A stretch of 64,000 nt of DNA from Gemmatimonadetes bacterium SCN 70-22 (lineage in GTDB: Bacteria > Gemmatimonadota > Gemmatimonadetes > Gemmatimonadales > Gemmatimonadaceae). Numbering within the stretch: the stretch's first letter is position 1; every line of letters begins with the position of its first letter. Positions 38,918-63,610 of this stretch are shown here, one piece after another. The position numbers and the translations under genes were made by a program. The notes under the pieces were generated by a model. That model was not told the origin of the DNA and searched no databases. It saw nothing but the letters and a program-made list of their open reading frames with translations. Location: NCBI GenBank assembly GCA_001724275.1, contig MEDZ01000008.1:1-64000 (forward strand). Direction: 5' to 3'.

Positions 38918-39166
38918 ATGTCCTGGCCCCGCCTCGTTTTCCAGCTCACGCTCGCCGCCCTGCGCCACCCGCCGCTGGCGGTTGACCTCCTGCGCGTGGC
39001 GTGGCGCTTCCGGGCAGACGGGTGGTACGCGCGCTTTCCCTTCCTCCCCCTCCCGTCGCGGGCGTACGTACGCTGGCGCATGCACACCGCCTACGGCGAC
39101 CCCGACGCCGTCCCACCCGCCGGCGACATCATCCGCTACGCCCGCTGGGTCGGCACGCAGCCATGA
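38918..39166 (+). CDS. conserved small protein upstream of queG
   Basis: An 82-residue protein (MSWPRLVFQLTLAALRHPP) with basic and aromatic residues and the C-terminal AYGDPDAVPPAGDIIRYARW. I do not recognise a named family. Its stop codon overlaps the queG start in an ATGA arrangement, so the two are probably translationally coupled. A linked function is possible but not shown. Confidence 0.6.
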   Translation: MSWPRLVFQLTLAALRHPPLAVDLLRVAWRFRADGWYARFPFLPLPSRAYVRWRMHTAYGDPDAVPPAGDIIRYARWVGTQP

Positions 39167-40326
39167 GCGACCCGGCGCCCGCTCCCGGCGCGGCGACGGC
39201 GCCCGACCTCCCGCTCGAGCGGCGCATCGAGCGACAGGCGTATGCGCTCGGCTTCGACCTCGTCGGGATCGCCAGGCTGGGGGAGGTGGAGACGGCCGGG
39301 TACTACGACGAGTGGGTGGCGCGTGGGTGCGAGGGGGAGATGGGATACATGGCGCGCGACGCGCACTTGCGCCACGATACCCGCCTTCCGCACCCCGGCG
39401 CCGTGAGCGCGATCGTCGTCGGGATGGACTACGGCGGCGGCGAGCCGCCGGGCCCCGTCGCTCGTTATGCACGAGGCGACGACTATCACGACCTGATGAA
39501 GGAGCGGCTGCGCGCCCTCCACGCCTGGCTCGCCACGGCGCTCGGCCGTGAGGTGGATGCGCGCCCCTACGTCGACACCGCTCCCATCCTGGAGCGCGAC
39601 CTGGCGCGGCGCGCGGGGCTCGGGTGGTTCGGGAAGAACACGAACCTCATCAATCCCCAGCGCGGATCGTTCTTCTTCATCGGGTCGCTGTTCGTGGCGC
39701 TCGAGTTGCAGCCGAGCGCGCCGTTCGAGGCCGACCGGTGCGGGAACTGCACGCGGTGCCTCGACGCCTGTCCGACCGATGCCTTCGACGGTCCGCGGCA
39801 GCTCGATGCGCGCAAGTGCATCTCGTACCTCACCATCGAGCACCGGGGGGAGATCCCCGAGGCCTTGCGACCGTTGCTGGGGGAGCTGCTGTACGGGTGC
39901 GACATCTGCCAGGAGGTGTGCCCGTATAACCATAAATTCGCGAAGGAACTATCCGAGCCCGCGTTCGCGGCACGCCCCGCGCTGTCGGGCAAGGACGCGA
40001 GGTCGCTCGCGCGCGAGCTGCTGGCCATGTCGCAACCCGAGTTCTCCGCCGCCTTCAAGGGCTCGCCCATGAAGCGCGCCAAGCTCCGCGGGTTGAAGCG
40101 CAACTCCGCCGTGGTGCTCGGCAACGCCGGGTCTCCAGACGACGTGGCGGCGCTGGCGGCGGCGCTCTCTGACGAGGAACCGCTCGTTCGTGGACACGCC
40201 GCGTGGGCGTTAGGCGCGATCGGCTCCGCCGAGGCGCTCGAGCCACTGCGGGCTCGTGCCTCGGCCGAATCGGACGCCTGGGTACTGGAGGAGCTGAACG
40301 CGGCGGTCTCCCGGCTCGGGGGCTGA
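39163..40326 (+). CDS. queG: epoxyqueuosine reductase QueG, with 3' end supplied by the mobile element
   Basis: A 387-residue QueG. It reduces epoxyqueuosine to queuosine in tRNA using cobalamin and two [4Fe-4S] clusters. The cluster motifs are complete: CGNCTRCLDACPTDAFDG and CDICQEVCPYNHKF, and the C-terminus has HEAT-like repeats (VVLGNAGSPDDVAALAAAL, LVRGHAAWALGAIG). The first 249 codons are host chromosome. From the crossover at 39910/39911 the coding sequence belongs to the integrated element, which carries a homologous 3' end in frame, so the full protein is restored. The host's own 3' end is left as a fragment at 63262-63610. The start at 39163 overlaps the upstream small gene. Confidence 0.93.
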   Translation: MSDPAPAPGAATAPDLPLERRIERQAYALGFDLVGIARLGEVETAGYYDEWVARGCEGEMGYMARDAHLRHDTRLPHPGAVSAIVVGMDYGGGEPPGPVARYARGDDYHDLMKERLRALHAWLATALGREVDARPYVDTAPILERDLARRAGLGWFGKNTNLINPQRGSFFFIGSLFVALELQPSAPFEADRCGNCTRCLDACPTDAFDGPRQLDARKCISYLTIEHRGEIPEALRPLLGELLYGCDICQEVCPYNHKFAKELSEPAFAARPALSGKDARSLARELLAMSQPEFSAAFKGSPMKRAKLRGLKRNSAVVLGNAGSPDDVAALAAALSDEEPLVRGHAAWALGAIGSAEALEPLRARASAESDAWVLEELNAAVSRLGG

Positions 40327-42035
40327 CTGCCTCCGAGCTCGAAGTACGCCGGCGCGTTTGGCGCGGTCCTGAGCGTGACGACCGCCGTCTTGTGGTTCGC
40401 CCGCTTCATTCCGGGCACCGGCTCGACCACGATGAGGACGTCGGCCACCCAGTAGTCGAGCAGGATGGTCCGCTCCTCCGGTCCCGCCGTCTCCCATGCA
40501 TCCGCCAGGTTCCGCGACTCGTGGATGATGCTCGAGAGACGGTCCCACGCGCTCTGGCGCGACTGCGCAAAGCGCTGCGCCTCCGCCAGCTGCGCCTTGC
40601 TGGCGCCGACCTGCTGCTTGGCCGCCTTGAGCCGCTCGACGAGCGCGTCGTCGCCATCGTCGTCGTCGGACGCCACGGCCGCGGCCATGTGGGCGAGACG
40701 CTTGTACGCCGCCTCGCGCTGCGCCAGCTCCTGCTCGGCGCGCGCCACGGCGTCTTCCGCCGACTTGCGGAATTCGTCGCGCTCCAGGATGAGGTCGCGC
40801 GCCGTGGCCTCGTAGTCGGCGTTGCTGCTACGCTGCGCCACGATGAGGTCCTTGATCTTGGTCTCGAGTTCCTCGGCATCCACGTACCACGCCTTGCAGC
40901 CGGCGGCCGAGAAGCGCTCGAACCTCTCGGGGTTCATGCGCTCCTTCGGCTTCGCGTGGACGTAGCCACGCGTTCCGCCCTGCTTCTTCGCGAGGCGGCC
41001 GCCGTTGTACTCGACACCGCAGTGTGCGCACGCTGGCTTCAGCGGAAATAGCTCCTCGTGGCGCCGCTGTCGTTCCCCATCCGCCTTCGAATGTCCACCG
41101 ATTTCCTTCTCCACCTCGCGGAACAGCTCGACGTCAACCATGGGACCCCACTCCGCTCGCTCCCGGCGGCGCATGCGCTTCCCTTCCTTCTCTTCACCCA
41201 GGAACGCGATCTCTCCGACGAGCACAGGATTGCTGAGGTAGTTCCGGACGGAACGATGTCCGAGCTTGCCACCTCGCGCACCGCGCACGCCCTGCTTGTA
41301 TAGCTCGGCGCCGATTCGGTCAAGGGACACACCCGCGAGATACTTCCTCGCCATCGGCTCCCAGTGCTTCAGCACCTCGTGATCGGGGATTAGGATCGTC
41401 CCTCCGCCGCCAGGCGTGGAGCGCTGCCCGTCGGCTAGTTCGCGGTCGGAGAGCGTGTCCCACCGCTTGGTACCCCACGGCGCGCTTCCGCCGACCCACC
41501 ACCCCTTGCTCGCGTGGCCGATTCTGCCGCGCCGCACGCTCTTCGAGAGGTTCGCGGAGTAGAGCGCCGCGGCGTAGGCGTAGAGCGCCATGGTGATCAT
41601 GTCCACCAACTGGTCGTTCGTCCGCTGCACCGTGACGAAGCAAATCCGCCAGTTGTAGCGCTCAAACTCGGAGAACACCGACTGGAAGGCCATGATGTCC
41701 GGTTGGCCGTCCTCGTCTAGCGTGCGTCCGAAGCGGCTCGGGTCATATAGCTCGACCCGTCCAGGATTCGACTTAGGCCGGGGGTTCTGACGGCAGAATT
41801 CGAGAAGGTCTTGGAACTCCGGCCGGTCGAACGAGGTGCCGGAGCAGCTGTCCTTCCACCACCACTCGCGGCTGATCGGCCCCCAGACCTCATCGGCGGC
41901 ATGCGCCTGCTGGTCGTGCGAGGCCACCTGGCGGTCCTCGCTCTCGGTGGACTTGCGCGTGTAGCGCAGGCGGTCGGGAATGATTCCGAACGCGGCAGCC
42001 AAGCGTTCGCGCCAGACGCGGAAGATCTTACTCAT
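39567..42035 (-). CDS. large serine recombinase (integrase)
   Basis: The open frame encodes 822 residues. The N-terminus is a serine-recombinase catalytic domain (RLRYTRKSTESEDR, catalytic serine probably S29). Next come a recombinase domain (RRGRIGHASKGWW, SVRNYLSNPVLVGEIAF), a zinc ribbon starting CAHCGVEYNGG and a long coiled coil (RDEFRKSAEDAVARAEQEL). The recognisable protein ends near residue 569 at about 40329. Beyond this the frame continues without a stop through the antisense of queG, across attL, to 39567 in host DNA. In the excised circle the same frame would instead cross the joined site and stop at 63184, giving 734 residues. The start at 42035 overlaps an upstream small gene by eight bases. 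This enzyme is the best candidate for integrating the element. Confidence 0.88.
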   Translation of the reverse strand: MSKIFRVWRERLAAAFGIIPDRLRYTRKSTESEDRQVASHDQQAHAADEVWGPISREWWWKDSCSGTSFDRPEFQDLLEFCRQNPRPKSNPGRVELYDPSRFGRTLDEDGQPDIMAFQSVFSEFERYNWRICFVTVQRTNDQLVDMITMALYAYAAALYSANLSKSVRRGRIGHASKGWWVGGSAPWGTKRWDTLSDRELADGQRSTPGGGGTILIPDHEVLKHWEPMARKYLAGVSLDRIGAELYKQGVRGARGGKLGHRSVRNYLSNPVLVGEIAFLGEEKEGKRMRRRERAEWGPMVDVELFREVEKEIGGHSKADGERQRRHEELFPLKPACAHCGVEYNGGRLAKKQGGTRGYVHAKPKERMNPERFERFSAAGCKAWYVDAEELETKIKDLIVAQRSSNADYEATARDLILERDEFRKSAEDAVARAEQELAQREAAYKRLAHMAAAVASDDDDGDDALVERLKAAKQQVGASKAQLAEAQRFAQSRQSAWDRLSSIIHESRNLADAWETAGPEERTILLDYWVADVLIVVEPVPGMKRANHKTAVVTLRTAPNAPAYFELGGSQPPSRETAAFSSSSTQASDSAEARARSGSSASAEPIAPNAHAACPRTSGSSSESAAASAATSSGDPALPSTTAELRFNPRSLARFMGEPLKAAENSGCDMASSSRASDLASLPDSAGRAANAGSDSSFANLWLYGHTSWQMSHPYSSSPSNGRKASGISPRCSMVRYEMHLRASSCRGPSKASVGQASRHRVQFPHRSASNGALGCNSSATNSDPMKKNDPRWGLMRFVFFPNHPSPARRARSRSRMGAVST
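39886..39933. other. attL of the serine-integrase element
   Basis: Left junction inside queG. It contains the 17-bp core CCAGGAGGTGTGCCCGT (39909-39925) shared with the right junction, with the putative crossover dinucleotide CA at 39910-39911. To the left is host queG coding for CDIC; to the right is the element arm ATAACCAT (39926-39933), the inverse of the arm at the right end. Confidence 0.85.
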
Positions 42036-49373: not shown

Positions 49374-49707
49374 ATTGGAGTACGGCAGAGGGGGAAGCTC
49401 GCCGCCATCGGGGCGAGCACCGCGTGATGCACGTCGGCCCAATGCAGGCTGGCAGTCCTCGACTGCCCGCGGCAAGGCCACTGCGACGGCAATGCGGGAC
49501 ACGAACCCGGTTCCACGCGGGGCGGGCCTCCCACGCTTGTCGTCGGTGTCCCTGCACAACTATCCTGTCGACACGGAGGGTCGCCGCGGCGAACCTCGCC
49601 CGCGCGGTGCGACAAGACATCGGAGCTGACGCGCAGCGTCCGCACCCCGCGTTGATCCGGGAACCGGAGCGGGGCACGTATGCTGTGGCCCCACCTCGGA
49701 GCGGTTC
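49374..49707. other. divergent intergenic region of rep and serine recombinase
   Basis: About 330 bases. The first half keeps the rep frame open to 49559. The second half holds a TATGCT -10-like box at 49679-49684 and a Shine-Dalgarno-like CGGAGCGG before the recombinase ATG. Rolling-circle origins often lie close to rep, but I do not see a clear hairpin origin here. Confidence 0.4.
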
Positions 49708-50640: not shown

Positions 50641-51591
50641 CTATCCTACAACGTCGTTCTCACTGCCTCGTTGGTTGCAGGCGTAGCACATCGAATAGCG
50701 ATCCAGGTGGCGCGCCTCTTGGCATTCCTTGCACAAGACCCACGTCCCGCCAGTCCTACAAGCGTTGCACTGTTGCTCGTCCAAGGGGTGCCACGCGTCG
50801 CGACACTCGACGCAGAGACGCACGCCGAGCTTGTCCCAGTTGAACGCGCAGGTCTTGCAGAACGTGGCGGTGCCATCGCCTGACATATACAGGGCGAACT
50901 CCTCGACGGCGCGCTTCACCGCGAGGCGATACAGCCAGTCATTCGTTGCCTGGTAGATCGGCTCGTACACCCTGGCGAACGCTTGCCGAAGAGCGAATTG
51001 CCCGCTTTCGACTCGGAGCGGCTGAACAAGGACCGGGTTGTCGAACTCGAACTGACACTGCCGGTGGTTGCGTGGAGATGCGCAGAAGTAGCGTGGCCTC
51101 CCGGCGCTGCGCCCGGTGCCCTTACGCTCCCGAAGATTCCAGCCGCCACACCTCGGACAGCCGGGGCGGAGATCCCCGTCCGGGCCGAGACGATCGCTAT
51201 ACTCGGGTTCAGCCGTGTGCTCACTGGCGAACTCTTCGTACAGCATTCGTCGGTGTTCGGCGCGAAGCTCCCGCAGCAAATCCTGCACTGACGCAGGTTG
51301 CCAGAGATGCTGGAGCGTGAACGGCGCCTCGGAAGTGCCGCACTGCTCGCACGTGGCCTGGATTCGCGATCGACGCAACGCGATCCACTCGGGAGTGTGC
51401 CAGTGGCGACCGCCGCGTATTGCGGCGAGTAAGCGTGCGTGCACGACTCGAGGCTCAACGGCGGACTGCTCCAAAGCCGCAACCAAGCCATCACACTCGG
51501 CTGCGGTAAGCGGCAGGACCCGCGCTTCCTGTTCCTCGGACTGTTCGCTTGAGATGGCGGGCTCGCGCACCGCCGGATCGTCAGACCTCAC
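50641..51591 (-). CDS. multi-zinc-ribbon protein of the type III R-M operon
   Basis: A 316-residue protein whose start overlaps the mod stop by 11 bases, so it is probably expressed with the R-M genes. It has about seven CXXC pairs: TCEQCGTS (C81/C84), GCPRCGGWN (C145/C148), CKTCAFN, LCVECRDAWH, QCNACRTGG, LCKECQEARH and MCYACNQRG. The first pair is followed by TLQHLWQP, which recalls an HNH-like or restriction-associated fold, but no complete catalytic motif is seen. No named family is recognised. It is an unusual third component for a type III operon. Confidence 0.65.
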   Translation of the reverse strand: MRSDDPAVREPAISSEQSEEQEARVLPLTAAECDGLVAALEQSAVEPRVVHARLLAAIRGGRHWHTPEWIALRRSRIQATCEQCGTSEAPFTLQHLWQPASVQDLLRELRAEHRRMLYEEFASEHTAEPEYSDRLGPDGDLRPGCPRCGGWNLRERKGTGRSAGRPRYFCASPRNHRQCQFEFDNPVLVQPLRVESGQFALRQAFARVYEPIYQATNDWLYRLAVKRAVEEFALYMSGDGTATFCKTCAFNWDKLGVRLCVECRDAWHPLDEQQCNACRTGGTWVLCKECQEARHLDRYSMCYACNQRGSENDVVG

Positions 51592-53728
51592 AGGTAAAGA
51601 GAACTTCCTCCCCCAGCATGTCTATGACCTTCACCGCGACGGTCGTCTTGCCCGCGGGGGCGGGGAGCTCGTACCGGCCCTCTACCAGGTCCACCTTGCC
51701 CTCGGGAACGTCGGTGAGCGCAACGTTGAACACCTGACCGTCGAATGCGGGGTCGATCATCACGCCGTCGACCATCGCGCGCCAGTCCTCGATGCGCGGC
51801 GCCAGCACACCCGCCTGCTGCTGCAGGCGCTGCACGATCGAGGGGGAGACAAAGTCCACCACCTCGACCTCGATCCGGCCGCCGCGCCGGCGCACACGGA
51901 TCTTCGCTTTCGCAGGCTCGTGTTTGAGGAACCCGCCGTACTTCGGGTCTGTGCGAAGCTCGATCACGCGGATCTTGTTCACGGCGTCGGCGCCGCGGCG
52001 TAGCGCGTTCCATTCGTCGACCCATGCCCGAGCGCCGAGCTCCATGCCAAGGCAGACCATTGTGACCGGGCGGTCCTCCTGCGGACGCGCGTCGAGCTCT
52101 CGCCGCAATTCCTCTAGGTCGAGCGGCGTGAGCGGCCGACCGAAGGGAACGATCTTGACCAGCGAGGTGCCGAGTATGCCATCGAAGTACCCATCGGTGC
52201 GCGAGCGCAGCAGACCCAGGTAGTCGGCGGCGAGGTTGACGGCCTCGTTGTGCTGCACCTGTAGGTCATAGTCGTTGACGCGCCAGGTAGAGAACGAGAG
52301 CTGCGCCGGGGCAGGGCGATCGCCATCCAGCCCGAGGCCCGCCTGGGTGGACGCTTGCTCTTCGATCACATCCTGCAGCCGCCTGGCCGTGGTCTGGATC
52401 GCACCCTTGTTGATGTCGCATCCGATCCAACGGCGCCCGAGCTTCTGCGCGACGGCCGCGGCGGTGCCTGAACCGATGAAGCAGTCCAAGACGATGTCGC
52501 CTGGGTTAGAGGATGCGAGGACGACACGCTCGATGAGCGCTTCGGGCTTCTGCGTCGGGTAGTCCTCGCGCTCTGATCCGACCATGTTGATGGGATCGAC
52601 GTCATCCCAGAAGTCGGTGCAGGCACGGCCTTGCGTTTCGGCCTCGTATCGCTTGAGTCGCGGCCATGCGCCTTCGCGCGCGGGCCAGTAGATCTTCCCC
52701 TCGGCGTCGAGGCGGTCCAGCGCCGTGGGGACCTTGGCCCAGTGTCGCCCGAGCGCGGACGGATTGAACCCGCGCCATGCCTCGCCGGAAGGGCCCCGGC
52801 GCAGCCCCGGCGCCGTCAGCTCGCCAAGAGCATACGTGCCCTGTTCATCTCGATGGCGGTAGTGGCGGGTGCGATGCGTCTCCGTCATCTCCTGGTATTG
52901 CTGATTCCACCGGCCCTGCTTGGGATCGAGCGAGTAGAAAAGCAGATAGTCCGTGACCGCACCAAACTGGTGGGCACCAGCGTGAGCGGTCGTTCGCTTC
53001 CAGGAAACCTGGTTTCTGAACGCATCGGGCCCGAACACCTCGTCGAGGAGGAAACGCAGGTGGTGCACCTTGCGCGCGTCGATGTGCACATAGATCGACC
53101 CGTTCCCTGCGAGCAACTCACGCAGGAGCAACAGCCGCTCGTACATGAACTGCAGGTAGTTGTCGTTCGCCCAGATGTCGGTGTATTGGATCTGCTCCCC
53201 GAGAGTGTAGCCTTCGCCATTGAGCCGTGCGGTGCCCGTGGCCCCTCTGAGTGACACCTTCCGCACGTAGTCGGCACCCGAGTCGAACGGGGGGTCGATG
53301 TAGATGAGGTTTACCTTCCCGCGGAAGCCGCTCGCCAGGAGATGCGCGAGGACCTCCTTGTTATCACCGTGGAAGAGAAGGCCTCCGTGAGGGTAGGCTG
53401 CAGGCCAGTCCGCCGACGCGGCAAGGGCTGCGGCGCCGGTGGGCTCGAACGCCTCGACCTGCTGCGCCGGGAATGCCTTCAGGTGCCGGAGCGGGCGCTT
53501 GCCGACCCATGTGAGCATTGGTCGGCCCTTCGCCGCGGTGATCTTCACCTCGACTGGTGACGGCACCGTAGGAGCGTTCGGCGCCGATGATGCTGCCGCG
53601 CCCTCGGTCGCCGACGTCGTGCTCTTCGCCTGCCGCTTGGGCGTTGTCGCATTCGTTCTCGCTCCGCTCTTGGCGGTGGCAGCCTTCTTGGGCGCACCCG
53701 CGCCCCGTCCGTTCGCCCTCTTACTCAC
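51581..53728 (-). CDS. mod: type III DNA methyltransferase (Mod)
   Basis: A 715-residue DNA methyltransferase of the beta group: motif IV LIYIDPPFDSGADYVRK (DPPF at 145-148) comes before motif I VLDCFIGSGTAAAV (D415 to G421), with QKPEALIERVV in between. These residues bind S-adenosylmethionine and place the target adenine. The N-terminal 60 residues are an Ala/Lys/Thr-rich flexible tail. The C-terminal part is the recognition and Res-binding region. It overlaps the res gene by eight bases and the downstream zinc-protein gene by 11 bases. The order res before mod is the reverse of the classical EcoP1/EcoP15 order. Recognition sequence unknown. Confidence 0.92.
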   Translation of the reverse strand: MSKRANGRGAGAPKKAATAKSGARTNATTPKRQAKSTTSATEGAAASSAPNAPTVPSPVEVKITAAKGRPMLTWVGKRPLRHLKAFPAQQVEAFEPTGAAALAASADWPAAYPHGGLLFHGDNKEVLAHLLASGFRGKVNLIYIDPPFDSGADYVRKVSLRGATGTARLNGEGYTLGEQIQYTDIWANDNYLQFMYERLLLLRELLAGNGSIYVHIDARKVHHLRFLLDEVFGPDAFRNQVSWKRTTAHAGAHQFGAVTDYLLFYSLDPKQGRWNQQYQEMTETHRTRHYRHRDEQGTYALGELTAPGLRRGPSGEAWRGFNPSALGRHWAKVPTALDRLDAEGKIYWPAREGAWPRLKRYEAETQGRACTDFWDDVDPINMVGSEREDYPTQKPEALIERVVLASSNPGDIVLDCFIGSGTAAAVAQKLGRRWIGCDINKGAIQTTARRLQDVIEEQASTQAGLGLDGDRPAPAQLSFSTWRVNDYDLQVQHNEAVNLAADYLGLLRSRTDGYFDGILGTSLVKIVPFGRPLTPLDLEELRRELDARPQEDRPVTMVCLGMELGARAWVDEWNALRRGADAVNKIRVIELRTDPKYGGFLKHEPAKAKIRVRRRGGRIEVEVVDFVSPSIVQRLQQQAGVLAPRIEDWRAMVDGVMIDPAFDGQVFNVALTDVPEGKVDLVEGRYELPAPAGKTTVAVKVIDMLGEEVLFTCEV

Positions 53729-56387
53729 GTCCGTCCTCTGCGAACCGAGCGATGCCCGCGACCTCGTCGGTCGGGATCACGCCGTTCCTGTCGAAGATGA
53801 TCTCGTAGCGGAGCCGCTCCGGGTTGAGCTGCTCCCAGCGCTTTACGGCGAGCGCCTTCCTCCCCTCGGGGCTCTTCGCATCACCGACCTCCATCTCGTG
53901 CTCCACCGTCGCCTGGAACTGGCTGCTCTTCACCTCGACGATGAGCACGCGACCTGACCCGGGCTTCGCCCCCTGGTCCGGCTTCTTCCGTATCACAAAG
54001 TCCGGCGTGTAGCGGCGCCATTTCCCCTTGTCGTCCTTGTACTCGACGTAGAAGTCTGTCTTGGCAGGGTCGGTCAGCGCTCCGGTGAAGAACACGTCCT
54101 CCACCTCATCGTGACCGACTTTCAGCTCGCGCAGGAGCTGCTCGAAGAAGTTGAGTTCCGTGTTCGAGTCGAAATCGTACGGGCTGTAGTGGAAGCCAAG
54201 ATCGCGCGGATTGCGGTCCTGCATGGCTTCCCAGGAGAGCAGCAGATGCTCGCGCTCCTTCGGGTAGACGATCTCCGCGGTGTAGACGTCGGCCCCGCTC
54301 GCGTCTCGCTCGAGTTGGAACCCCTCGGGACGCACGAGCGCAAGCGCGACGTCAACCTTCTCCTCCGTGACGGCGTACGCTCCCTGCCACGCCTCGATCT
54401 GGCGGCCCAATACCTCCAGGTGAGCATCGGGGATGTCGTCAGCCGCATAGAGGCGCCTGACCTCGTCATAGACGGTCCACGTGTCGAGCCGGTACCGTCC
54501 CGCCAATGCCACCGCGGCGCCGTAGGCGTCGAGTCCCTCCGGAGGCGTCTCGATGGTCACTGTCTCGCCCAGCTGATGCAGGACAGTGAAGCTGGACTCC
54601 TGGTCCGCGATCGTGAGCTCTGCCCGGAGCAGCTTCGCCCCGGCGGCCGATTTGGGCCGCTGCAGGACCAGCGGCCCACGGTCCATCTCCGGCGCGCGCT
54701 CGATCCGGCGCAGCGTCTGTGTCACAACGAGGGGCGGCAGATCGAGCTTCCGTAGGACGATGCGCGCCCGCCGCGTCTCGCGTGCCGTGTGGTCCAGGTC
54801 CTGGAGCGACTCCCCGAAGGTCTCCTGGAGCTGCCTGTCGAGGATCGCGCGGTTGTCGTTCGACAGGTAGATGCGCGCGGGCTTCCCGTTCCCCGGGACC
54901 TGGCGCAGGCAGCGGGTCGCCGCCTGCAGGACGAAATTGTTCGAGGTGCGGAGCTTCCGAGCGAGCGCGCAGGCGAACAGACTCGGGCAGTTCCACCCCT
55001 CGGTCCCCTTGTTGACCAGCAGGATCACCCGATGCGGGGCCGACGGGTCGTTGAGCCGGTTGAACGCATCGACCTCCGCGGCCGATGCGTCCGAAGTGTT
55101 CTCCAGTGCGAGCGCCACCGGGATTCCGGCCGCTACCATCGCCTCGTCCACCACGGGCCGAAGCTCCTGCAGGTCATCCTTCTGGGGGAAGTAGATCGCC
55201 AGCTTCGCGGGCGCGCCGTTGGGCAGGGTGGTGTCGCCGTACTCTCGGAAGAAGTCGGTGACGACCTCGCGCACGTACGCGCTGGCGTCTCCATCGAACT
55301 CATAGGAGAGGATGTTGCCGGCGACGTCCTTGAGGATGCCGTCGCGAATCCCCTCGGCAAGCCCGTACCAGATCACCACGTCGCGCAGCGGCTGACGTTC
55401 GAAGTACGGCGTTCCGGTTGTGTTGACCACGGCGTAGACGTTGGTCTGCGCGGCCAGGTAGTCGACCGTCTTGCGGACCTTCTTGAGCTCCGCGTCGAGC
55501 GATTGGCCATAGGTGTGGTGCGCCTCGTCGGAGAAGATGGCGAGGTGGGGGAGACTAGCAATCGCCTGCAGGCGCAGGTTCGCGACCTCGGCGCGCGCCT
55601 CATCCTCGCGCCCCGGGGCGAAAAGACTCCCGATGTCGCTCTTCCGGACCGTCTCCTTCTGAATCCGGATCTTCTCGGTGTTGGTGACGATGACGTTGAA
55701 GAGCGACTTCCGGATGACAGGAAGGTCTTTCTCCCCGTCGCGGGTGAAAGTCAGCTTGATCGTCGCCGCGAAGGGGCTGTACATCCGCGGCGGCAGGACG
55801 CGCTCGTACGGGATCTCGACCAGCTCGCGCAGCGACTCGATGATCGTTTTGCCGGGGGCGAACACCAGCGCGTTCTGGACGAACGGGCCGTCGGGGTACT
55901 CCATCGCCATGGCGAACTCCGTGGCGACGATGGTCCCGATGAGGATCGTTTTGCCGGCCCCCATGGCGAGCGCCAGGATGTAGCTGGGGTAGCCGAGCGT
56001 GAGCGTCTCGCGAACCGACTCGAGCTTGAAATCGCGGACGAACTGATCGTCGATCCGGATGCGATCCCAGAGCGCCGGCATGCCCTCGTCCTCAACCAGA
56101 TCCCGGATCTCACTCGCGGTCAGCCCGAGGGCTGCACGCAACTCGGAGCTCTTGGTGTAGAGCCGCTGGTACAGCTCGAACACGTGCGGCGTCTTCTCGA
56201 TCAGGCGGAGGTACCAGTAAGTCTCGAGGGCCCGGAGCTGCGGGGTCCGAAGGAACCTGAGCTGGCCGGTGCCGGGTTCGCGGGCCCAGTCAAAGAGCTC
56301 TCCGATGGCGGGGTAGTCAGCGCACGGGTAGCCGGCTTGGCGCCATGCGGCGACTGCGCTGGCCAGCTTCTCGTGAAGGTGCGGCAT
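53721..56387 (-). CDS. res: type III restriction enzyme (Res)
   Basis: An 888-residue SF2 helicase-nuclease. Helicase motif I is AMGAGKTILIGTIVA (K146) and motif II is FSDEAHHTYGQ (DEAH at 287-290), with AATRCLRQVPGNG in the later motif region. At the C-terminus is a PD-(D/E)xK nuclease: YTPDFVIRKK (D796) and LIVEVKSSQ (E818, K820). The protein translocates or slides along DNA and cuts unmethylated sites when bound to Mod. The arrangement of domains and the adjoining mod gene make the assignment secure. The start at 56387 is an ATG near the beginning of the alignable N-terminal region. Confidence 0.92.
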   Translation of the reverse strand: MPHLHEKLASAVAAWRQAGYPCADYPAIGELFDWAREPGTGQLRFLRTPQLRALETYWYLRLIEKTPHVFELYQRLYTKSSELRAALGLTASEIRDLVEDEGMPALWDRIRIDDQFVRDFKLESVRETLTLGYPSYILALAMGAGKTILIGTIVATEFAMAMEYPDGPFVQNALVFAPGKTIIESLRELVEIPYERVLPPRMYSPFAATIKLTFTRDGEKDLPVIRKSLFNVIVTNTEKIRIQKETVRKSDIGSLFAPGREDEARAEVANLRLQAIASLPHLAIFSDEAHHTYGQSLDAELKKVRKTVDYLAAQTNVYAVVNTTGTPYFERQPLRDVVIWYGLAEGIRDGILKDVAGNILSYEFDGDASAYVREVVTDFFREYGDTTLPNGAPAKLAIYFPQKDDLQELRPVVDEAMVAAGIPVALALENTSDASAAEVDAFNRLNDPSAPHRVILLVNKGTEGWNCPSLFACALARKLRTSNNFVLQAATRCLRQVPGNGKPARIYLSNDNRAILDRQLQETFGESLQDLDHTARETRRARIVLRKLDLPPLVVTQTLRRIERAPEMDRGPLVLQRPKSAAGAKLLRAELTIADQESSFTVLHQLGETVTIETPPEGLDAYGAAVALAGRYRLDTWTVYDEVRRLYAADDIPDAHLEVLGRQIEAWQGAYAVTEEKVDVALALVRPEGFQLERDASGADVYTAEIVYPKEREHLLLSWEAMQDRNPRDLGFHYSPYDFDSNTELNFFEQLLRELKVGHDEVEDVFFTGALTDPAKTDFYVEYKDDKGKWRRYTPDFVIRKKPDQGAKPGSGRVLIVEVKSSQFQATVEHEMEVGDAKSPEGRKALAVKRWEQLNPERLRYEIIFDRNGVIPTDEVAGIARFAEDGRE

Positions 56388-56699: not shown

Positions 56700-59600
56700 A
56701 TGAGTCTGCGTCGGGGCAACCTCCAGCCGGCACACCGTGGGTACTGGTACCAGGACATCGCGACCGCGTACATGCTCGTCCGCGCGATGGTCGAGCGCTA
56801 CGATGCGGTGATCGTCGACCGGAAGGTCGTGGACGACGATCGCCTCGACGACCTGGAGGTGCGCGCCGCGGGCCGGCGCGTCCGACGACAGTTCAAGTCG
56901 AGCCAGGACGCGGCGCGGCCGCTGAGCGCGCAGGACTTCACGGCGACCGCCTCAAGCCTCCGCATCGACCGGCTGGTGCGCACGCACACTCGGGCCGGCG
57001 ATTCGCCGGCCGACGAGTACCGGCTGTGCGCCACGTGGGCGCCGCCCGACGCGGGCGATCCGCTCGCGGCGCTGCTCGAACCGATTACGGCCCCGCCTAC
57101 GCTAGTCGGCTGGCCCATCCGCTGCTTCCGGCTCAAGGCCGAGCTGATCTGGCCAACAGGAGCGAGCCCGATCTGGGCGCCGCTCACCCCGCCCACAGCC
57201 TCGGGTACCGCAGCGAGCGCCGATGCGGGCACCGCCGGTGGCGCGGCGCCGGTCGCGCCGATCACCCGCGCCGAACTGCTCGACTTCTGCCAGCGATTCA
57301 TCATCGAACTGGCCCTCCCCGTCGCGTCGACGGAACTAACCGCGCCGGGCCCGTTCGAGCGCGCACTCGTCGAAGAGCTCGCCGAACGGGTAGGCATCGG
57401 TCGCTACCCAAACCACGGCCGCGCGCCCTCGGACGTTGCGGCGCTCGCCATCGCGCTCGCCACGATTGCTCGCACGCAGGAAGGGTCGCTTACGCCGAGC
57501 GACGTCGAGCGGGAGCTGGAGATCCGTGTGGACTTCGGCCGCGTGGCGCAGGCGTTCCCCCTCGACGCCGCGCTGTTCCACGACCGGCCGACGTTCCGGC
57601 AGGCCCTACGAACCACGGCGCTCGCCGGCGGCCACCAGCTCGTCATCGCACCCCCGGGCGCCGGGAAGTCGTGGGAACTGACCCGGCTCGCCGAGGAGCT
57701 GACTGCGGCCGGCGCCATCGTCGCACGGCACTACTGCTACCTCGAGCCCGGAGACGCGCTCGTCGAGCGGCGGGTGACCACAGACGTGTTCTTCGGCAAC
57801 CTGCTCGGGGAGTTGCTCGACGCCGACCCGTCGCTCCATGGCGCCGGCGGCGCCCGATATGCCGCGGGCCTCGGCGAGCTCGAGGCGACTCTGGCGCGCG
57901 CGGCGGCGACCGGGCGCCCGGTGGTGCTGATCGTCGACGGTATCGATCACATCGCGCGCGTGCGAAGCGACACCCGTCGTCTCGGGGACGCCGAGACCGA
58001 CATCGTCGAGCGCCTGGCGACGGCGCAAGTGCCGCCGGGCGTGGCGCTCGTGATCGGCTCGCAGCCCGGGCGTCACCTCGAGCCGCTCCGCGAGCGGTGG
58101 GGCACTGCGCTGCTCGAGCGGACGGTGCCGCCGTGGCTGCCGGCCGACTTGGCGGCGCTGGCAGACCGCCAAGGACTGACGCGCGCCCTCTCCGCGGTCG
58201 GCGTCACGTCGGCCGGCGACATGGCGCGTGTCCGCAGCGCCCTCGCCGAGCGGGCCGACGGGCTCCCCCTGTACGCGCACTACCTCGCACGCGGGCTGGT
58301 GGCGGGCCTGCAGGACGGCACCATCGCGTCCCCGGACGAGTGGCTCGACGCAGCGCCCGCGACCGGCGGCGACGTGGCCGTCTACTACGCGCACCTTTAC
58401 CGCAGCGCGAGCGCGCAGGCGCAGGTCATCGCCGATCTGCTCGGCGTCATCGATTTCTCCGTCACCGAATCCGAGCTCCGCGAGATGGTGCCGGCCTTCG
58501 TCGGGGCTTGGCTACCGCCGGCGCTCGCACAGCTCGCGTCGATCCTGACGGTGGCGACCGGCCAGGGCGGCTTCCGCATCTTCCATGAGAGCTTCCGCCG
58601 TTTCATGACGCAGGAGCTCGCGCGGCAGGGCCGGTCCCCAGCCGACGCGCTCCGCCCGGTGATCGACTGGCTCACCGCGCGTGGGTTCTATGCCGACGCG
58701 AAAGCGTACCGCTTCCTCCTGCCGGCGCTCCGCCGCGCCGACCGGGGCGCCGAGATCCTGGTGCGCGTCGACGCGGCATTCGTCTCCGACAGCGTCGCCC
58801 AGGCGCATGCGGCCGACGCCGTCCAGCGGAACCTCGCCCTCGCCGCCGACGTGGCGGCCGAGCGCCGCGACTGGCCGGCGCTCGTGCGCTGCGTCGAGCT
58901 GCACCGCGCCGCGTACACCTGCTTCGACGAGTCCCAGAACGACTGGCGCGACTACTGGGCCACCTACCTGACGCTCTTCGGCCCCACCGCCCTGGCCGAG
59001 CGCCTCCTGTTCGACGGCCGACCCACGCAGTCCGCGTCCGACGGGCTCTACGCCTGCGCGCTCGTCGACGACGCGGGCGGGATCGCACCGTGGCAGGAAT
59101 ACCTCGCGCTGTACGACGCGGGCGCGCGCGGGAACGCAAACCCGTCTGGCTTGTCGGACTCCGAGGGGAGCCTCACCTCGACGGAGGCCATTGACCTCGC
59201 CGCGGTGCACGGGCGCATCCGGCTCGGCGAGTGGCGTGGGGTCGCCCGGCGGCTGCTCACCTACCTCGCGGAGGTCGGCGACCGCTTCAAGCCGCTCTTC
59301 GTCCGGCAACTGGCGGCCCGCATGGCGCGGATGCTGGGCCCGGAGCTGGTCGAGCGGATGGCACAACGCGCAGATCCGACTCGCCCCGGCGGCCCGCGCC
59401 TGAGCCGGCGGGCCGCGGCTGTGCTCCGCCTTGGCCTCGCGGACGAACTCGCGCGCGCCGGCGACGACGCGGCAGCGCGCGCGGCGGCCGGCCGCGCGTT
59501 CCCAGACGCGGACACCCCAGCGCTGGCGGCGGCGTGTGTGGCGTACAGCGCCGGCGAGCCGGACCCCGGCCAGCCCCCCGTGTGGTCACCCCACCCTGGC

Positions 59601-62600
59601 GCGGCGGTCGATCCGGCTGCGCTCCCGATCGCCGTCGGCCCCGACGTCCACCTGCACGACGCGGCCGGCGTCCGCGCTTGGGTCGCCGCCGTCCGTCTCG
59701 CCGCCGCCGACCCTGCGGGCGGGCCGGCGACCCTCGAGGCAGAGTGGCGGCGCGTCACAGGGGTCGGCTGGTATCGCTGCTGGCTCCGCTTCGTCTTGGG
59801 TCTCTCGCGGGCGGAGGCCGCGCGTTACGCCGGGCAGGCCGCCGACGTCAGCGGCGCCTTCGCAGAGCTCACACGTGACGTCCACCCCTTCCGCGGGCAG
59901 CCTCGGGCGTGCGACCTCTGGGCCATCCGCTTGGTCATCCAGGAGAGCATCGCGCGGGGGCTTCGGCTCCTGTGCACGGACGCCGAGTGGCGAGACGCTC
60001 TGACAGCGCTGGCCCTCGCCGCCGGTGAGACGTCCACGCGCATGGACCGGGAGGATGGTGGGCCGCTCTCCACGGGCACCGTGCTCGAGGTGCTGCTTCC
60101 GCACGCGGCAGATCCCGTCGGGGGTGCCCACGTGCGGGCGACAATCGAGCGCCTGGTGGCAGCCCTCGAGGCGAACGGCACCTACTACCCGACCCATGCG
60201 GAGTACGCGATGCGCTTGGCGCGCGCGCGGCACGCGGCGGGCGATGTGGCCGGCGCGCGCGAGGCGTGGGCGCGCGGCGCGGTGTACCTCGGCGCGTACG
60301 GATGGCGGAAGGACGTGACCATCTACGACATCATCGAAGGCGCATCCGCCCTTCTCGCGCACTCGCCCGAGCGCGCGCTCCGCGCCCTCGCGGACACGCA
60401 GCCGCTCGTACACGCCGTCGTCGCGCACACTGACGGCCGCTCGACCAACCACGCGCCCAATACGTGGCTCCGCGGCGTGCTGGCGGCGCGGATACCGGCG
60501 GGCCTCGCGGTCCTCGCCCGCACACTCGTGGAGGAGGACGACCCGAGCGGCTGGGTCAACGCACTGGCGGTGCAACACGCCGCCGCGGCCGCCAGAGGGG
60601 CGGGAGACCCCGGGCTCGTGGACGCCGTGCTCGCGACGCTGCGTTTCGAGGCGGACGACCACGACGCGCTCGAGCGCATCGACGCCCGCTTGGCACCGGT
60701 CCTCGGCCTGCTCCATACGGATCGTCCGCGAGCGGTTCGGGCGCTCCGGCGAGTGGCCGCCGAGGTGACGGGGGACGGGCGGCGCGACGCCACCACTGCG
60801 GCGGCCCGCGTCGTTGCCGTCGCGGAAGAACACGGGCTCTCCGTCCCGCGCATCGCGCGCGACAGCGCGGCCGCCGGCATGTCCGCTGCGTCGGGGCCCC
60901 CTAGCGGACTCTCCTCGCCCACGGGGCACGGGTCGAGGCGCTTTCGACCGGACGAGGTAGACCGCGCGCTGGGCCTCCGCGAGCCGCCGTTCGTCCCGAA
61001 CCCCACCCTGGTCGACCTGCTCGCGGGACTCCGACGGGCGGCGGCCTCACGTCGCTGGGACGAGCCCGGGGGTGCGGAGCACGTGGCGCTCTCCCTCGGC
61101 TATCGACTCGGGCAGCTCGTCGACGACGGACGGGAGGACGACGTCGGGCGGCTACTCCGCTTCTTCGCCCGGGACGCAGGGGCTTGGGGGTCGAGCCAGG
61201 TGCATCCGCTCGGGACGCTGGCGGATGCCTTGGATGCAGGCGGCTATCCGGGGCCGGCGGCGATCGCATACGCCCTCGCCTTCACGGCTACGCGCGGTGG
61301 CAACGGGTGGCACCGCCTCGGCGATACGACCCACGGCTATCTGATCGACCGCGCCATCACGCTCGACCCGGATCTGGCGCGTCAGGTCATCGCGGACGAG
61401 GTGGCGTACGCCCTCCGCGAGAGCACGTACAGCAGCGGGATCACGCGGCACCTCGTGGAGCGCCTCGCTGCGTGGGGTGAACCCGAGACGGCGGAGGCGG
61501 CGTGGCGCGAGGCGTTAGCGGTCATTCGGCACCGGCTCCCGCTCGTCCCGGCGCAGGGGTGGTTCGCGCCGCTACGAGACGAGCGGGAGCCCGATTGGCC
61601 GGATGACGGCTGGTCCGTCGACGAGGCGCTGATGGCGGTGCTGCTCGCCCGCCTCGGGGACCCGCGGCTCGCGCAGAAGGTGCAGGCGCTCACCGGCGTC
61701 GTCGATGCGATCGCGCGCCGCCCCGACGCGGTCGCCGCGCCGATGCGCTGGTGGCTCGGACGGAACACGCCGGTAACCGCCGTGCTGCTCGCGTTGGAGG
61801 CGCTCGTCCGCGCTGAGCCGGCGCCGTTTCCGATCACCACCGCCCTCGACGAGGTCTTGCGCGGCTACGCCGCCTGCGACCTGTGGGGCGCGCGACGTCT
61901 CGCGGCCGCGCTGCTCGAGCGGGCGGGTCGGCCTGCGGCAGCCGAGCCGAGTTCCGGCGGCGCCGCAACCGGGACGACGGGGCTGCCGGCGATCGACGCG
62001 GCACGGCACCGAGCTCTCAGGACACTCGATACCGGGCGGGTGTTGGACGACCTGGAGTCGCTCTGGCCAGCGCTGCCAGACCGCGTCGTGCGACGCCTGC
62101 ATGCCTTGCTGACCGAGGGCGACCACCGCGAGCGGGCGCATGCGCGCTACCGGCTCGCCGAGGGGCGCGACGGCGATGCGCACCCGCGCACGCCCATCGT
62201 GCCGTGGGAGGTGGAACTCTTTCAGGTGGCGCTCCACGAGGCGTCGTGCGGCCTGTCCGCACACCTGTGGAGCACCGGGCAGTGGGCACTCGGGCTTGAG
62301 GACGCCGTGGTGCGGCGTGCACTGCCCGACGTGCGTCTGCACCTAGGCTTGGCCGCGAGCCGGGCGCCGCGACCGCCTTGGCCCGCCGCCGAGACCGTAA
62401 CCGAGGGCGTCTCGCTTCCTCTGGTGCTGGGCGACGATGACCCGTATTACGCCGGCTGGACGCGCTTGGCGTACTTGGAGAGGCGATACCTGCCGGACCC
62501 CAATGCCCCGTACGGGCGGCCGACCGAGGAGATCACAGTGCTCGCGGGGGTCGTAGCGGTCCCGCTCGGCCGGGCGGTGCCGCCCGGCGCCGTGCCATTC

Positions 62601-63023
62601 GTGGACGGCGATGCCCAGGACTGGTGGTCCCCAGACGGAGAGTTCGGAGGGGGACGGGCGTCGGTCGCACTGGCCCGGGCAGAGGGGCCCCTGGTGGGGC
62701 TGGACCGTGTCACCGATTGGCTGGGCGACACGGACGTGCTGGTGCCGCCTGCAGCCTTGGTCGACTTGCTGCACGTGGCGGCACCTGAATTCGGCGGACC
62801 GCTCGTCTGGCGCGATGATCAAGAGAGCCCGGCGGTCGCGCTTCGAACCTGGTGGGTGCGCAACGGTGAGGCACTCTTCGCCGAGCCGGCCGCATGCGTG
62901 GGCGCCGACCTCGTGATCCGGCCCGACCTGTTTGAACGTTTGTGCGTCAGCTTCGGAGTGCCGCTGCGCGAGCTACGCGCAGTTCTCCGGCGTCCGGTCC
63001 CGGGACGGCGCGCGCGGCCATGA
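56700..63023 (+). CDS. giant STAND NTPase with N-terminal nuclease-like domain (Avs-type candidate)
   Basis: A 2107-residue protein. Residues 1-90 look like a DUF4297/Cap4-type PD-(D/E)xK nuclease: HRGYWYQDIATAYMLV, the acidic cluster DDDRLDDLEV (residues 45-54) and RRQFKSSQD (Q64, K66). A STAND NTPase domain follows: Walker A QLVIAPPGAGKSWELTR (K323), Walker B PVVLIVDGIDHIARV (D413) and LVIGSQPGRHLEPL as the sensor strand. The remaining 1500 residues are Ala-rich helical repeats of TPR/HEAT type, as expected of a sensor. This layout is that of Avs antiphage proteins, which bind conserved phage proteins and then degrade DNA. The family match is by motif wording only; the target is unknown. 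It is divergent from the type III res gene. Confidence 0.75.
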   Translation: MSLRRGNLQPAHRGYWYQDIATAYMLVRAMVERYDAVIVDRKVVDDDRLDDLEVRAAGRRVRRQFKSSQDAARPLSAQDFTATASSLRIDRLVRTHTRAGDSPADEYRLCATWAPPDAGDPLAALLEPITAPPTLVGWPIRCFRLKAELIWPTGASPIWAPLTPPTASGTAASADAGTAGGAAPVAPITRAELLDFCQRFIIELALPVASTELTAPGPFERALVEELAERVGIGRYPNHGRAPSDVAALAIALATIARTQEGSLTPSDVERELEIRVDFGRVAQAFPLDAALFHDRPTFRQALRTTALAGGHQLVIAPPGAGKSWELTRLAEELTAAGAIVARHYCYLEPGDALVERRVTTDVFFGNLLGELLDADPSLHGAGGARYAAGLGELEATLARAAATGRPVVLIVDGIDHIARVRSDTRRLGDAETDIVERLATAQVPPGVALVIGSQPGRHLEPLRERWGTALLERTVPPWLPADLAALADRQGLTRALSAVGVTSAGDMARVRSALAERADGLPLYAHYLARGLVAGLQDGTIASPDEWLDAAPATGGDVAVYYAHLYRSASAQAQVIADLLGVIDFSVTESELREMVPAFVGAWLPPALAQLASILTVATGQGGFRIFHESFRRFMTQELARQGRSPADALRPVIDWLTARGFYADAKAYRFLLPALRRADRGAEILVRVDAAFVSDSVAQAHAADAVQRNLALAADVAAERRDWPALVRCVELHRAAYTCFDESQNDWRDYWATYLTLFGPTALAERLLFDGRPTQSASDGLYACALVDDAGGIAPWQEYLALYDAGARGNANPSGLSDSEGSLTSTEAIDLAAVHGRIRLGEWRGVARRLLTYLAEVGDRFKPLFVRQLAARMARMLGPELVERMAQRADPTRPGGPRLSRRAAAVLRLGLADELARAGDDAAARAAAGRAFPDADTPALAAACVAYSAGEPDPGQPPVWSPHPGAAVDPAALPIAVGPDVHLHDAAGVRAWVAAVRLAAADPAGGPATLEAEWRRVTGVGWYRCWLRFVLGLSRAEAARYAGQAADVSGAFAELTRDVHPFRGQPRACDLWAIRLVIQESIARGLRLLCTDAEWRDALTALALAAGETSTRMDREDGGPLSTGTVLEVLLPHAADPVGGAHVRATIERLVAALEANGTYYPTHAEYAMRLARARHAAGDVAGAREAWARGAVYLGAYGWRKDVTIYDIIEGASALLAHSPERALRALADTQPLVHAVVAHTDGRSTNHAPNTWLRGVLAARIPAGLAVLARTLVEEDDPSGWVNALAVQHAAAAARGAGDPGLVDAVLATLRFEADDHDALERIDARLAPVLGLLHTDRPRAVRALRRVAAEVTGDGRRDATTAAARVVAVAEEHGLSVPRIARDSAAAGMSAASGPPSGLSSPTGHGSRRFRPDEVDRALGLREPPFVPNPTLVDLLAGLRRAAASRRWDEPGGAEHVALSLGYRLGQLVDDGREDDVGRLLRFFARDAGAWGSSQVHPLGTLADALDAGGYPGPAAIAYALAFTATRGGNGWHRLGDTTHGYLIDRAITLDPDLARQVIADEVAYALRESTYSSGITRHLVERLAAWGEPETAEAAWREALAVIRHRLPLVPAQGWFAPLRDEREPDWPDDGWSVDEALMAVLLARLGDPRLAQKVQALTGVVDAIARRPDAVAAPMRWWLGRNTPVTAVLLALEALVRAEPAPFPITTALDEVLRGYAACDLWGARRLAAALLERAGRPAAAEPSSGGAATGTTGLPAIDAARHRALRTLDTGRVLDDLESLWPALPDRVVRRLHALLTEGDHRERAHARYRLAEGRDGDAHPRTPIVPWEVELFQVALHEASCGLSAHLWSTGQWALGLEDAVVRRALPDVRLHLGLAASRAPRPPWPAAETVTEGVSLPLVLGDDDPYYAGWTRLAYLERRYLPDPNAPYGRPTEEITVLAGVVAVPLGRAVPPGAVPFVDGDAQDWWSPDGEFGGGRASVALARAEGPLVGLDRVTDWLGDTDVLVPPAALVDLLHVAAPEFGGPLVWRDDQESPAVALRTWWVRNGEALFAEPAACVGADLVIRPDLFERLCVSFGVPLRELRAVLRRPVPGRRARP

Positions 63024-63240
63024 CATGCGCCGGTCCTACGGCCATCTGGTGCCCGTCGACGGCGAATCGGCTCGTGTAGCGAAGCTGCCGGCCGCGCTCC
63101 GCCCATGGGAATGTTCCCGGACCGAGGGGCCTGTGCGCGTGAAACGAAGCGACGACAACTCACGGCAAATGAAGGCGCCTCCACTACTTGCGCCTGTGCT
63201 TGGCGAGTGTCCGCGCTCCCGTCCCGAGGCGGATTCGGAA
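63024..63240. other. right end of the element, no gene recognised
   Basis: About 215 bases between the STAND gene stop and attR. In the excised circle the minus strand at 63261-63184 would encode the last residues of the integrase, ending at a TAG at 63184-63186. Confidence 0.55.
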
Positions 63241-63290
63241 ATGGTTATACCGGCACACCTCCCAGGAGGTGTGCCCGTGGAACGTGCGGT
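63241..63290. other. attR of the serine-integrase element
   Basis: Right junction. The element arm ATGGTTATAC and the following bases (63241-63261) lead into the 17-bp core (63262-63278), with the putative CA crossover at 63263-63264. Host queG sequence coding for WNVRFSREL continues on the right. The left arm is the inverted copy of the arm at attL. Confidence 0.85.
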
Positions 63291-63610
63291 TCTCACGGGA
63301 GCTGGCGGAGGATTCGCCGTTCAAGCCGCGTGACGTTCTGCGGGGTCGCGATGCGAGAACGCTCGCGCGCGAGCTGCTCGCGATGTCGCAGGAGGAGTTC
63401 TCCGCCGCGTTCCGCAAGTCGCCGATGAAGCGGGCGAAGCTGCGGGGGCTCAAGCGCAATGCGGCAGCGGTGCTCGGCAACGTTGGCAGTGGCGATGATG
63501 TCGATGTGCTCACACGTGCGCTCGATGACGAGGAGCCGCTCGTGCGCGAGCACGCCGCATGGGCGATCTCGCAGATCGCTAGGCGGATCTCGAGTTCAGC
63601 AGCTGGATGA
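63262..63610 (+). pseudogene. queG: displaced 3' fragment of host queG
   Basis: The frame encodes QEVCPWNVRFSREL, then LARELLAMSQEEFSAAFRK and VLGNVGSGDDVDVLTRALD, matching the C-terminal part of QueG. It lacks the first 250 codons and any start of its own. It differs from the element-borne tail at 39926-40326 at many positions, so it is not a recent copy. The final HEAT-like repeat seen in the left copy is missing; the frame ends at 63610 in overlap with the convergent flavoprotein gene. Not expected to be functional. Confidence 0.88.

What the first reader, a model, noticed from the sequence alone, without database searches (positions are those of the whole stretch)
56700..63023. 2107-residue STAND nuclease next to a type III R-M operon
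The protein joins an N-terminal PD-(D/E)xK-like nuclease (D/E cluster at 45-54, Q64 and K66), a STAND NTPase (K323, D413) and about 1500 residues of helical repeats. This is the plan of Avs antiphage sensors, but the length and the repeat region are not something I can assign to a named Avs class. Together with the R-M genes and the HNH nuclease it forms a defence island carried by a serine-integrase element.
Basis: partly seen in the sequence, partly recalled or inferred. Interest (0 to 1): 0.8.

Follow-up and report, generated by a model that had tools for sequence, protein, structure and literature searches.

The report
Unnamed Avs-type phage-sensor nuclease lineage
The 2107-residue protein is a real bacterial immune-sensor nuclease of the Avs kind: it belongs to an unannotated lineage found in at least eight bacterial phyla, shares the full-length plan of the phage-terminase sensor Avs3, and in one branch occurs naturally as two separate genes.

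Summary
ORF 56700-63023(+) encodes 2107 aa and is under purifying selection. It has a Cap4/DUF4297-like PD-(D/E)xK nuclease (invariant D40, K42, D47, D50, D51, Q64, K66), a STAND NTPase (K323, D413) and a long helical region. It ends in a beta-rich domain (about 1920-2107), not in helical repeats.

Predicted models of residues 1-665 and 1250-2107 both find Avs3 (8dgc) as top Foldseek match, in order along the chain. By sequence the protein is not Avs3a: it forms its own clade with 26 sampled relatives, and its profile aligns full length with an unnamed Avs1-like nuclease form on an enterobacterial IncC plasmid. No Pfam, NCBIfam or PADLOC model names it.

New: in Pseudomonadota and Campylobacterota the gene is split; the last ~300 residues are a separate, overlapping downstream gene.

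Context: the gene ends a ~23-kb serine-recombinase element inserted in queG, divergent from a type III-like R-M operon.

Most likely mechanism: a phage packaging protein (probably large terminase) triggers NTP-dependent oligomerisation and DNA degradation. The trigger is inferred, not shown.

The parts
56700..63023 (+). Avs-type STAND nuclease gene, 2107 aa, ATG start
   Evidence: relatives; purifying selection; same start context (MSxRRGNLQPAHRGY) in the same-family copy
56724..57530 (+). Cap4/DUF4297-like PD-(D/E)xK nuclease domain, residues ~9-277
   Evidence: VIA-align: HerA-DUF4297 9c1m Z 15.1, rmsd 4.0, 208 aligned; Cap4 7yib Z 14.4, rmsd 3.5, 213 aligned; invariant D40 K42 D47 D50 D51 Q64 K66
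57540..58694 (+). STAND NTPase plus winged-helix-like region, residues 281-665; Walker A PPGAGKS (318-324), Walker B D413, invariant H417, Q455, H629/S631/F632/R634
   Evidence: Pfam AAA_16/NPHP3_N/NACHT in all or 20 of 21 members; Apaf-1 Z 19, MalT complex 8bob Z 18.6; invariants
58695..62369 (+). Helical-repeat sensor region, residues ~666-1890
   Evidence: model of 1250-2107 helical to ~1886, mean pLDDT 73; residues 666-1249 not modelled, only aligned with relatives
62460..63020 (+). C-terminal beta-rich domain, residues ~1921-2107
   Evidence: secondary structure of the model; included in the Avs3 match ending at model residue 852; homologous to Avs1-like C-terminus E 4.3e-6
62085..62981 (+). 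Part (residues 1796-2094) that is a separate gene in the split branch
   Evidence: hhalign of the ~290-aa partners against the family, E 1e-25; hmmsearch up to 2.5e-37 in other fused members
53721..56387 (-). Restriction subunit of a type III-like R-M operon: helicase with C-terminal PD...EVK motif
   Evidence: ResIII 3.1e-5 above cut-off, TnsA-like nuclease 1.1e-3; BPTD_3080 family 7.4e-13; sequence
51581..53728 (-). DNA methyltransferase of the R-M operon (DPPF motif)
   Evidence: N6_N4_Mtase 7.6e-44; PADLOC MTase_II 1e-80, MTase_III 2.6e-49
50641..51591 (-). 316-aa Cys-rich protein, possible HNH nuclease, last gene of the R-M operon
   Evidence: motif reading only; no family match
39567..42035 (-). 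Large serine recombinase ORF; its last ~250 codons are antisense to queG
   Evidence: Resolvase 6.2e-8 and Recombinase 2.9e-8; translation
39163..40326 (+). queG, intact, left boundary of the element; 3' part differs from congeners
   Evidence: TIGR00276 1.1e-100; 5' part 85% identical to the congener, 3' part 71% over a shorter stretch
63188..63610 (+). queG 3' remnant, right boundary of the element, 165 bp after the Avs stop codon
   Evidence: TIGR00276 6.4e-15, model 236-336; alignment

Best explanation
It is an Avs-type (AVAST) single-protein phage sensor of an unnamed lineage. Inferred mechanism: the resting monomer binds a conserved phage packaging protein, most likely the large terminase subunit, through the helical superhelix and C-terminal beta domain. 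NTP binding at K323/D413 then drives oligomerisation, which brings the N-terminal Cap4-like nuclease domains together. Their D50/D51...Q64-x-K66 site then degrades phage and host DNA, so the infected cell dies or stalls before phage release. Shown here: gene reality, the domain folds as predicted models, conserved catalytic residues, Avs-like full-length order, mobile-element and defence setting. Inferred: trigger, oligomerisation, DNA cleavage, defence.
For: Top Foldseek match of residues 1-665 is Avs3 8dgc (E 1e-12); VIA-align covers 5-583 on Avs3 4-525, Z 16, rmsd 6.1, 447 aligned. Residues 1250-2107: Avs3 8dgc E 3e-8, next match 0.018; 657 residues aligned, 1-852 on Avs3 1199-2049, Z 12.6, rmsd 9.3. 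Cap4 and DUF4297 nuclease folds at the N-terminus. Invariant nuclease and Walker residues. Profile match over 1839 columns, 9-2088, to Avs1-like nuclease forms, E 1.6e-34; to Avs1b with Avs1-like forms, 267-855, E 1.9e-35; to Avs3a STAND E 8e-8. Neighbours of relatives include BREX, type I R-M, MADS, PD-Lambda-4/Avs4-like and Hma-like genes. Literature: Avs1-Avs4 use nucleases and sense terminase, portal or another phage protein (PMC12931631); the DUF4297 nuclease domain is superimposed on the Avs3 cap4 domain tetramer and degrades host and phage DNA (PMC11291478).
Against: The C-terminal model is of middling confidence (pLDDT 73) and the Avs3 superposition is loose (rmsd 9.3), so the terminase contacts may not be kept. 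Z 12.6 is at the level helical repeats can reach by chance; the case rests on length of coverage and the E-value gap. Nuclease and C-terminal parts show no significant sequence similarity to Avs3a. Avs3b, the second Avs3 gene, is absent. No phage data exist for any member.
Confidence: 0.75

Rival explanations
1. Same Avs-type machine, but the trigger is not the terminase: portal, another virion or early phage protein, or a host change caused by phage.
For: Avs4-type systems sense portal and Avs5 other proteins (PMC12931631); bNACHT25 senses through DnaJ (PMC12169576 title and abstract). The sensor half is the least conserved part (mean top-residue share mostly 0.22-0.45 against about 0.45-0.6 in nuclease and NTPase).
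Against: The two nearest known relatives by sequence (Avs1) and structure (Avs3) are both terminase sensors (own knowledge of the Avs literature; the primary paper was not held), and the C-terminal half fits the Avs3 fold only.
Confidence: 0.4
2. The protein is a diverged Avs3 or Avs1 and adds nothing beyond membership in that type.
For: Same length and domain order as Avs3a; STAND homologous to both.
Against: On a tree of the NTPase region the family is one group (90/86) apart from Avs1b (100/100), Avs1-like (91/94) and Avs3a (100/100). It lacks Avs3b and the Avs1 protease and metallo-hydrolase, and PADLOC Avs3a does not match.
Confidence: 0.25
3. A STAND regulator of the mobile element or of transcription (MalT-like) that is not a defence protein.
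For: MalT complex 8bob is among the best structural matches of the NTPase; the gene lies on an integrative element.
Against: Intact invariant PD-(D/E)xK nuclease, no DNA-binding output domain recognised, Avs3 match across the C-terminal half, defence neighbours.
Confidence: 0.05
4. The sensor watches incoming plasmids or other mobile elements rather than phages.
For: Several members sit on plasmids or near integrase and TnsD/TniQ genes.
Against: No known Avs1-Avs4 acts this way in the papers read; the fold match is to a terminase complex.
Confidence: 0.07

Closest known systems
Avs3 (SeAvs3, PDB 8dgc; PADLOC Avs3a PDLC02167)
   Same: Cap4-like nuclease, STAND, long repeats and C-terminal beta-rich end in the same order and at the same length; top Foldseek match of both halves
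   Different: Sequence similarity confined to the STAND part (E 8e-8); no PADLOC Avs3a match; no Avs3b-type gene
Avs1-like nuclease STAND on an IncC plasmid (WP_172692825.1, L005) and L074
   Same: Profile alignment over the full length, 9-2088, E 1.6e-34, with nuclease (6e-4 alone) and C-terminus (4e-6 alone)
   Different: About 28% identity in the STAND part of the pair; separate branch of the tree; not split in the two examples seen
Avs1b (NF041810, PDLC02159)
   Same: STAND and start of the repeats, 294-787, E 1.2e-15; 267-855, E 1.9e-35 with Avs1-like forms added
   Different: Avs1b has a trypsin-like N-terminus and a metallo-hydrolase partner (L068-L070; PMC12799240)
Cap4 (PDB 7yib) and DUF4297 of HerA-DUF4297 (PDB 9c1m)
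   Same: N-terminal nuclease fold, Z 14.4 and 15.1
   Different: Cap4 has a SAVED sensor and needs a nucleotide signal; DUF4297 pairs with HerA; neither carries STAND
Avs2, Avs4, Avs5
   Same: STAND-type Avs sensors
   Different: Avs2 STAND match weak (E 6e-4); Avs4 0.04 with one relative only; Avs5 uses Sir2

Membership tests
Avs (AVAST), broad sense | N-terminal effector, central STAND NTPase, C-terminal repeat sensor | tested here: met
Avs (AVAST), broad sense | Phage protection set off by a phage protein | not testable with these tools
   needs plaque and co-expression assays
Avs3 | Match to the Avs3a profile (PDLC02167) | tested here: not met
   no hit at E 0.1 for P0001 or at E 1 for five proteins of relatives
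Avs3 | Avs3 fold and domain order over the whole chain | tested here: met
   for residues 5-583 and 1250-2101; 666-1249 not modelled
Avs3 | Downstream Avs3b gene | tested here: not met
   the window gene is followed by the queG remnant; the split partner of relatives is not Avs3b-like (hhalign E 0.33)
Avs3 | Binds large terminase | not testable with these tools
   inferred only
Avs1 | Score above the NCBIfam Avs1b cut-off (1500 bits) | tested here: not met
   23 bits
Avs1 | Trypsin-like protease N-terminus and metallo-hydrolase Avs1a partner | tested here: not met
   Cap4-like nuclease instead; neighbour genes are the divergent R-M operon
Avs1 | STAND domain closer to Avs1 than to other Avs types | tested here: inconclusive
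   profile E 1.9e-35 against the Avs1 set, 9e-7 against Avs3a, but the tree gives a separate group and few Avs sequences were sampled
Cap4 / CBASS | SAVED domain and cyclase partner | tested here: not met
   STAND follows the nuclease; no cyclase was recognised among the window genes examined

The most novel reading that the evidence does not exclude
A further AVAST type, spread over at least eight phyla, whose sensor tip (last ~300 residues) is a detachable unit: in Pseudomonadota and Campylobacterota it has become a separate, usually overlapping gene, so that recognition could be supplied or swapped in trans.
Probability: 0.4. Interest if true: 0.7.

Novelty: new variant of a known kind. Interest (0 to 1): 0.5.

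Why it matters
If it works as inferred, a widespread class of very large 'ATP-binding' and 'hypothetical' proteins gets a function, and the Avs1 and Avs3 types, which barely resemble each other by sequence, gain an intermediate that links them. The split branch gives a ready experiment on what the last 300 residues of an Avs sensor do: leave the small gene out, or exchange it between species, and see whether defence or only its range is lost.

Tried and rejected
Single-sequence searches found little: no PDB match, no relatives in genome contigs or viral contigs from the first patterns, none in phages, none in viral contigs with the alignment. Profile search of PDB with the nuclease gave only chance matches (Vif and others). 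The idea that the split partner is Avs3b or another known Avs partner was dropped: no PADLOC match, no meaningful NCBIfam match, and hhalign E 0.33 to Avs3b. A first tree used a wrong ORF for the G099 copy and a very long Avs2 branch; it is replaced. BFVD search of the C-terminus gave nothing significant. The VIA-align lists do not exclude other Avs folds, since few are solved. In one search one segment (660-1250) was not run. The Gao 2020 and 2022 papers were not held.
Full report
Observation. The ORF at 56700-63023(+) is 2107 aa, single copy in its genome. In 73.6% GC DNA a long ORF alone proves little, so I tested coding by relatives. A partial copy in another genome of the same family is 66.7% identical over 902 aa, with most differences at third positions (223/161/549) and dN/dS about 0.14, dS near saturation. 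Full-length relatives of 33-41% identity occur in Pseudanabaena, Desulfofundulus, Carboxydocella, a Syntrophomonadaceae MAG and an Opitutaceae MAG.

Family. A scan with a four-sequence alignment returned 26 loci; two more came from genomes of the host's phylum. In 395 genomes of the phylum five matched, of which three (the window's own included) are convincing, and the two congeners sampled have none: patchy, as for mobile defence genes. Organisms named in the records belong to Bacillota, Bacteroidota, Verrucomicrobiota, Actinomycetota, Cyanobacteriota, Pseudomonadota, Campylobacterota and a 'Deltaproteobacteria' MAG (placed in Myxococcota by the lookup). Pfam, NCBIfam and PADLOC gave the window protein only weak NTPase matches: AAA_16 below its cut-off, Avs1b at 20-23 bits.

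Nuclease. Residues 1-665 were modelled with 21 sequences, mean pLDDT 87. VIA-align places 9-277 on DUF4297 of HerA-DUF4297 (9c1m, Z 15.1, rmsd 4.0, 208 aligned) and 4-276 on Cap4 (7yib, Z 14.4, rmsd 3.5, 213 aligned). D40, K42, D47, D50, D51, Q64 and K66 are invariant. A Q-x-K in place of E-x-K is a known PD-(D/E)xK variant (own knowledge). In the HerA-DUF4297 paper this nuclease domain is superimposed on the Avs3 cap4 tetramer, cuts double-stranded DNA and empties cells of host and phage DNA (PMC11291478).

NTPase. Walker A PPGAGKS, D413, H417, Q455 and the HxSFRR motif at 629-634 are invariant or nearly so; matches are to AAA_16, NPHP3_N, NACHT, Apaf-1 (Z 19) and plant NLRs.

Sensor half. 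Residues 1250-2107 were modelled with 17 sequences, mean pLDDT 73. It is helical to about 1886 and then beta-rich. Foldseek gives Avs3 8dgc at 3e-8 and 4e-8 and then nothing better than 0.018. VIA-align covers 657 residues, 1-852 on Avs3 1199-2049 (Z 12.6, rmsd 9.3), where the next repeat protein reaches Z 11.8 over only 104 residues. With the N-terminal match (5-583 on 4-525) the two proteins run in parallel from end to end; residues 666-1249 were not modelled.

Place among Avs types. Reference proteins were fetched by family: Avs3a, Avs1b, Avs2. Profile comparison: Avs3a, STAND only, E 8e-8; Avs1b with Avs1-like forms, 267-855, E 1.9e-35; Avs1-like nuclease forms alone (L074 and the IncC plasmid protein), 9-2088 in one alignment, E 1.6e-34, with the C-terminal piece alone at 4.3e-6. 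As a yardstick, Avs1b against Avs3a gives only 0.005. On a 405-column NTPase tree the family is one group (90/86), apart from the three Avs types, in two halves: one with the window protein, one with Bacteroidota, Clostridia and the split branch. An earlier tree contained a wrong ORF and is withdrawn.

Split branch. Seven loci in Pseudomonadota and Campylobacterota carry a large gene of 1568-1604 codons followed by a small gene. In six the small gene is 287-301 codons, overlapping by 8 nt in four and by 20 and 34 nt in two; in Gallibacterium it looks broken. The small protein matches the C-terminus of fused members (hmmsearch to 2.5e-37; hhalign to window residues 1796-2094, E 1e-25). The branch is a single supported group (98/98) inside the family, and the outgroups are single-chain, so one fission is the simplest history.

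Setting. The gene stands alone, divergent from a type III-like R-M operon: helicase with PD...EVK nuclease, DPPF methyltransferase, and a Cys-rich 316-aa protein. Intact queG lies at the left of the serine recombinase; a queG 3' remnant lies 165 bp after the Avs stop codon and a second one at 68.68-69.03 kb of the contig. In a congener the 5' part of queG is 85% identical to the left copy, while the remnants align with the congener's 3' end over a longer stretch than the left copy's own 3' end does. The natural reading is an element of about 23 kb (40.0-63.3 kb) inserted in the 3' part of queG, with the Avs gene at its far end, followed by a 5-kb arsenic module. Relatives' neighbours include BREX, type I R-M, MADS, PD-Lambda-4/Avs4-like and Hma-like genes; no background rate was computed, so this is descriptive.

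Mechanism. Shown: coding gene, predicted folds, conserved catalytic residues, domain order, mobile setting. Inferred: phage protein binding, NTP-driven oligomerisation, DNA degradation, cell death. Terminase is the favoured trigger because Avs1 and Avs3 are terminase sensors (own knowledge; PMC12931631 says Avs1-Avs4 sense terminase, portal or another phage protein); I put that step alone at about 0.55.

Verdict. It is a new variant of a known kind: an unnamed Avs lineage, not an odd protein without a class. No paper naming it was found in the held library, which lacks most subscription journals.

Noticed in passing
window 39163-40326, 63188-63610; contig C8 68682-69029 (L064 8683-9030): queG serves as integration site: intact chimeric queG at left and two 3' remnants at right, all sharing CCAGGAGGTGTG near the point where similarity begins; suggests two elements inserted in tandem.
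   Followed up: partly
contig C8 63579-68495 (L064 3580-8496, minus strand): Arsenic module between the two queG remnants: ArsO-like monooxygenase, ACR3 efflux transporter, arsenite methyltransferase ArsM, ArsR-type regulator.
   Followed up: yes
window 39567-42035 (-): The serine recombinase ORF runs about 250 codons into the antisense strand of queG; its stop codon may differ in the excised form.
   Followed up: no
window 44994-45539 (+): 181-aa protein with an HNH region similar to that of IscB and Cas9d (1e-6 to 8e-10).
   Followed up: no
window 47637-49559 (-) and 49708-50553 (+): Rolling-circle type Rep_1 initiator and a short 281-aa serine recombinase similar to the N-terminus of CcrB on the same element.
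   Followed up: no
L004 7122-10868: Next to a split member on a Moraxella plasmid: a 1248-aa protein matching PD-Lambda-4_A (6e-127) whose first 248 residues match the Avs4 N-terminus (2e-67).
   Followed up: no
L063 138-2870 (-), L028 1187-4809: Likely broken or truncated copies: the same-family copy stops after 902 aa near a contig end; the Desulfothermus copy is in several frames.
   Followed up: partly
   Followed up: no
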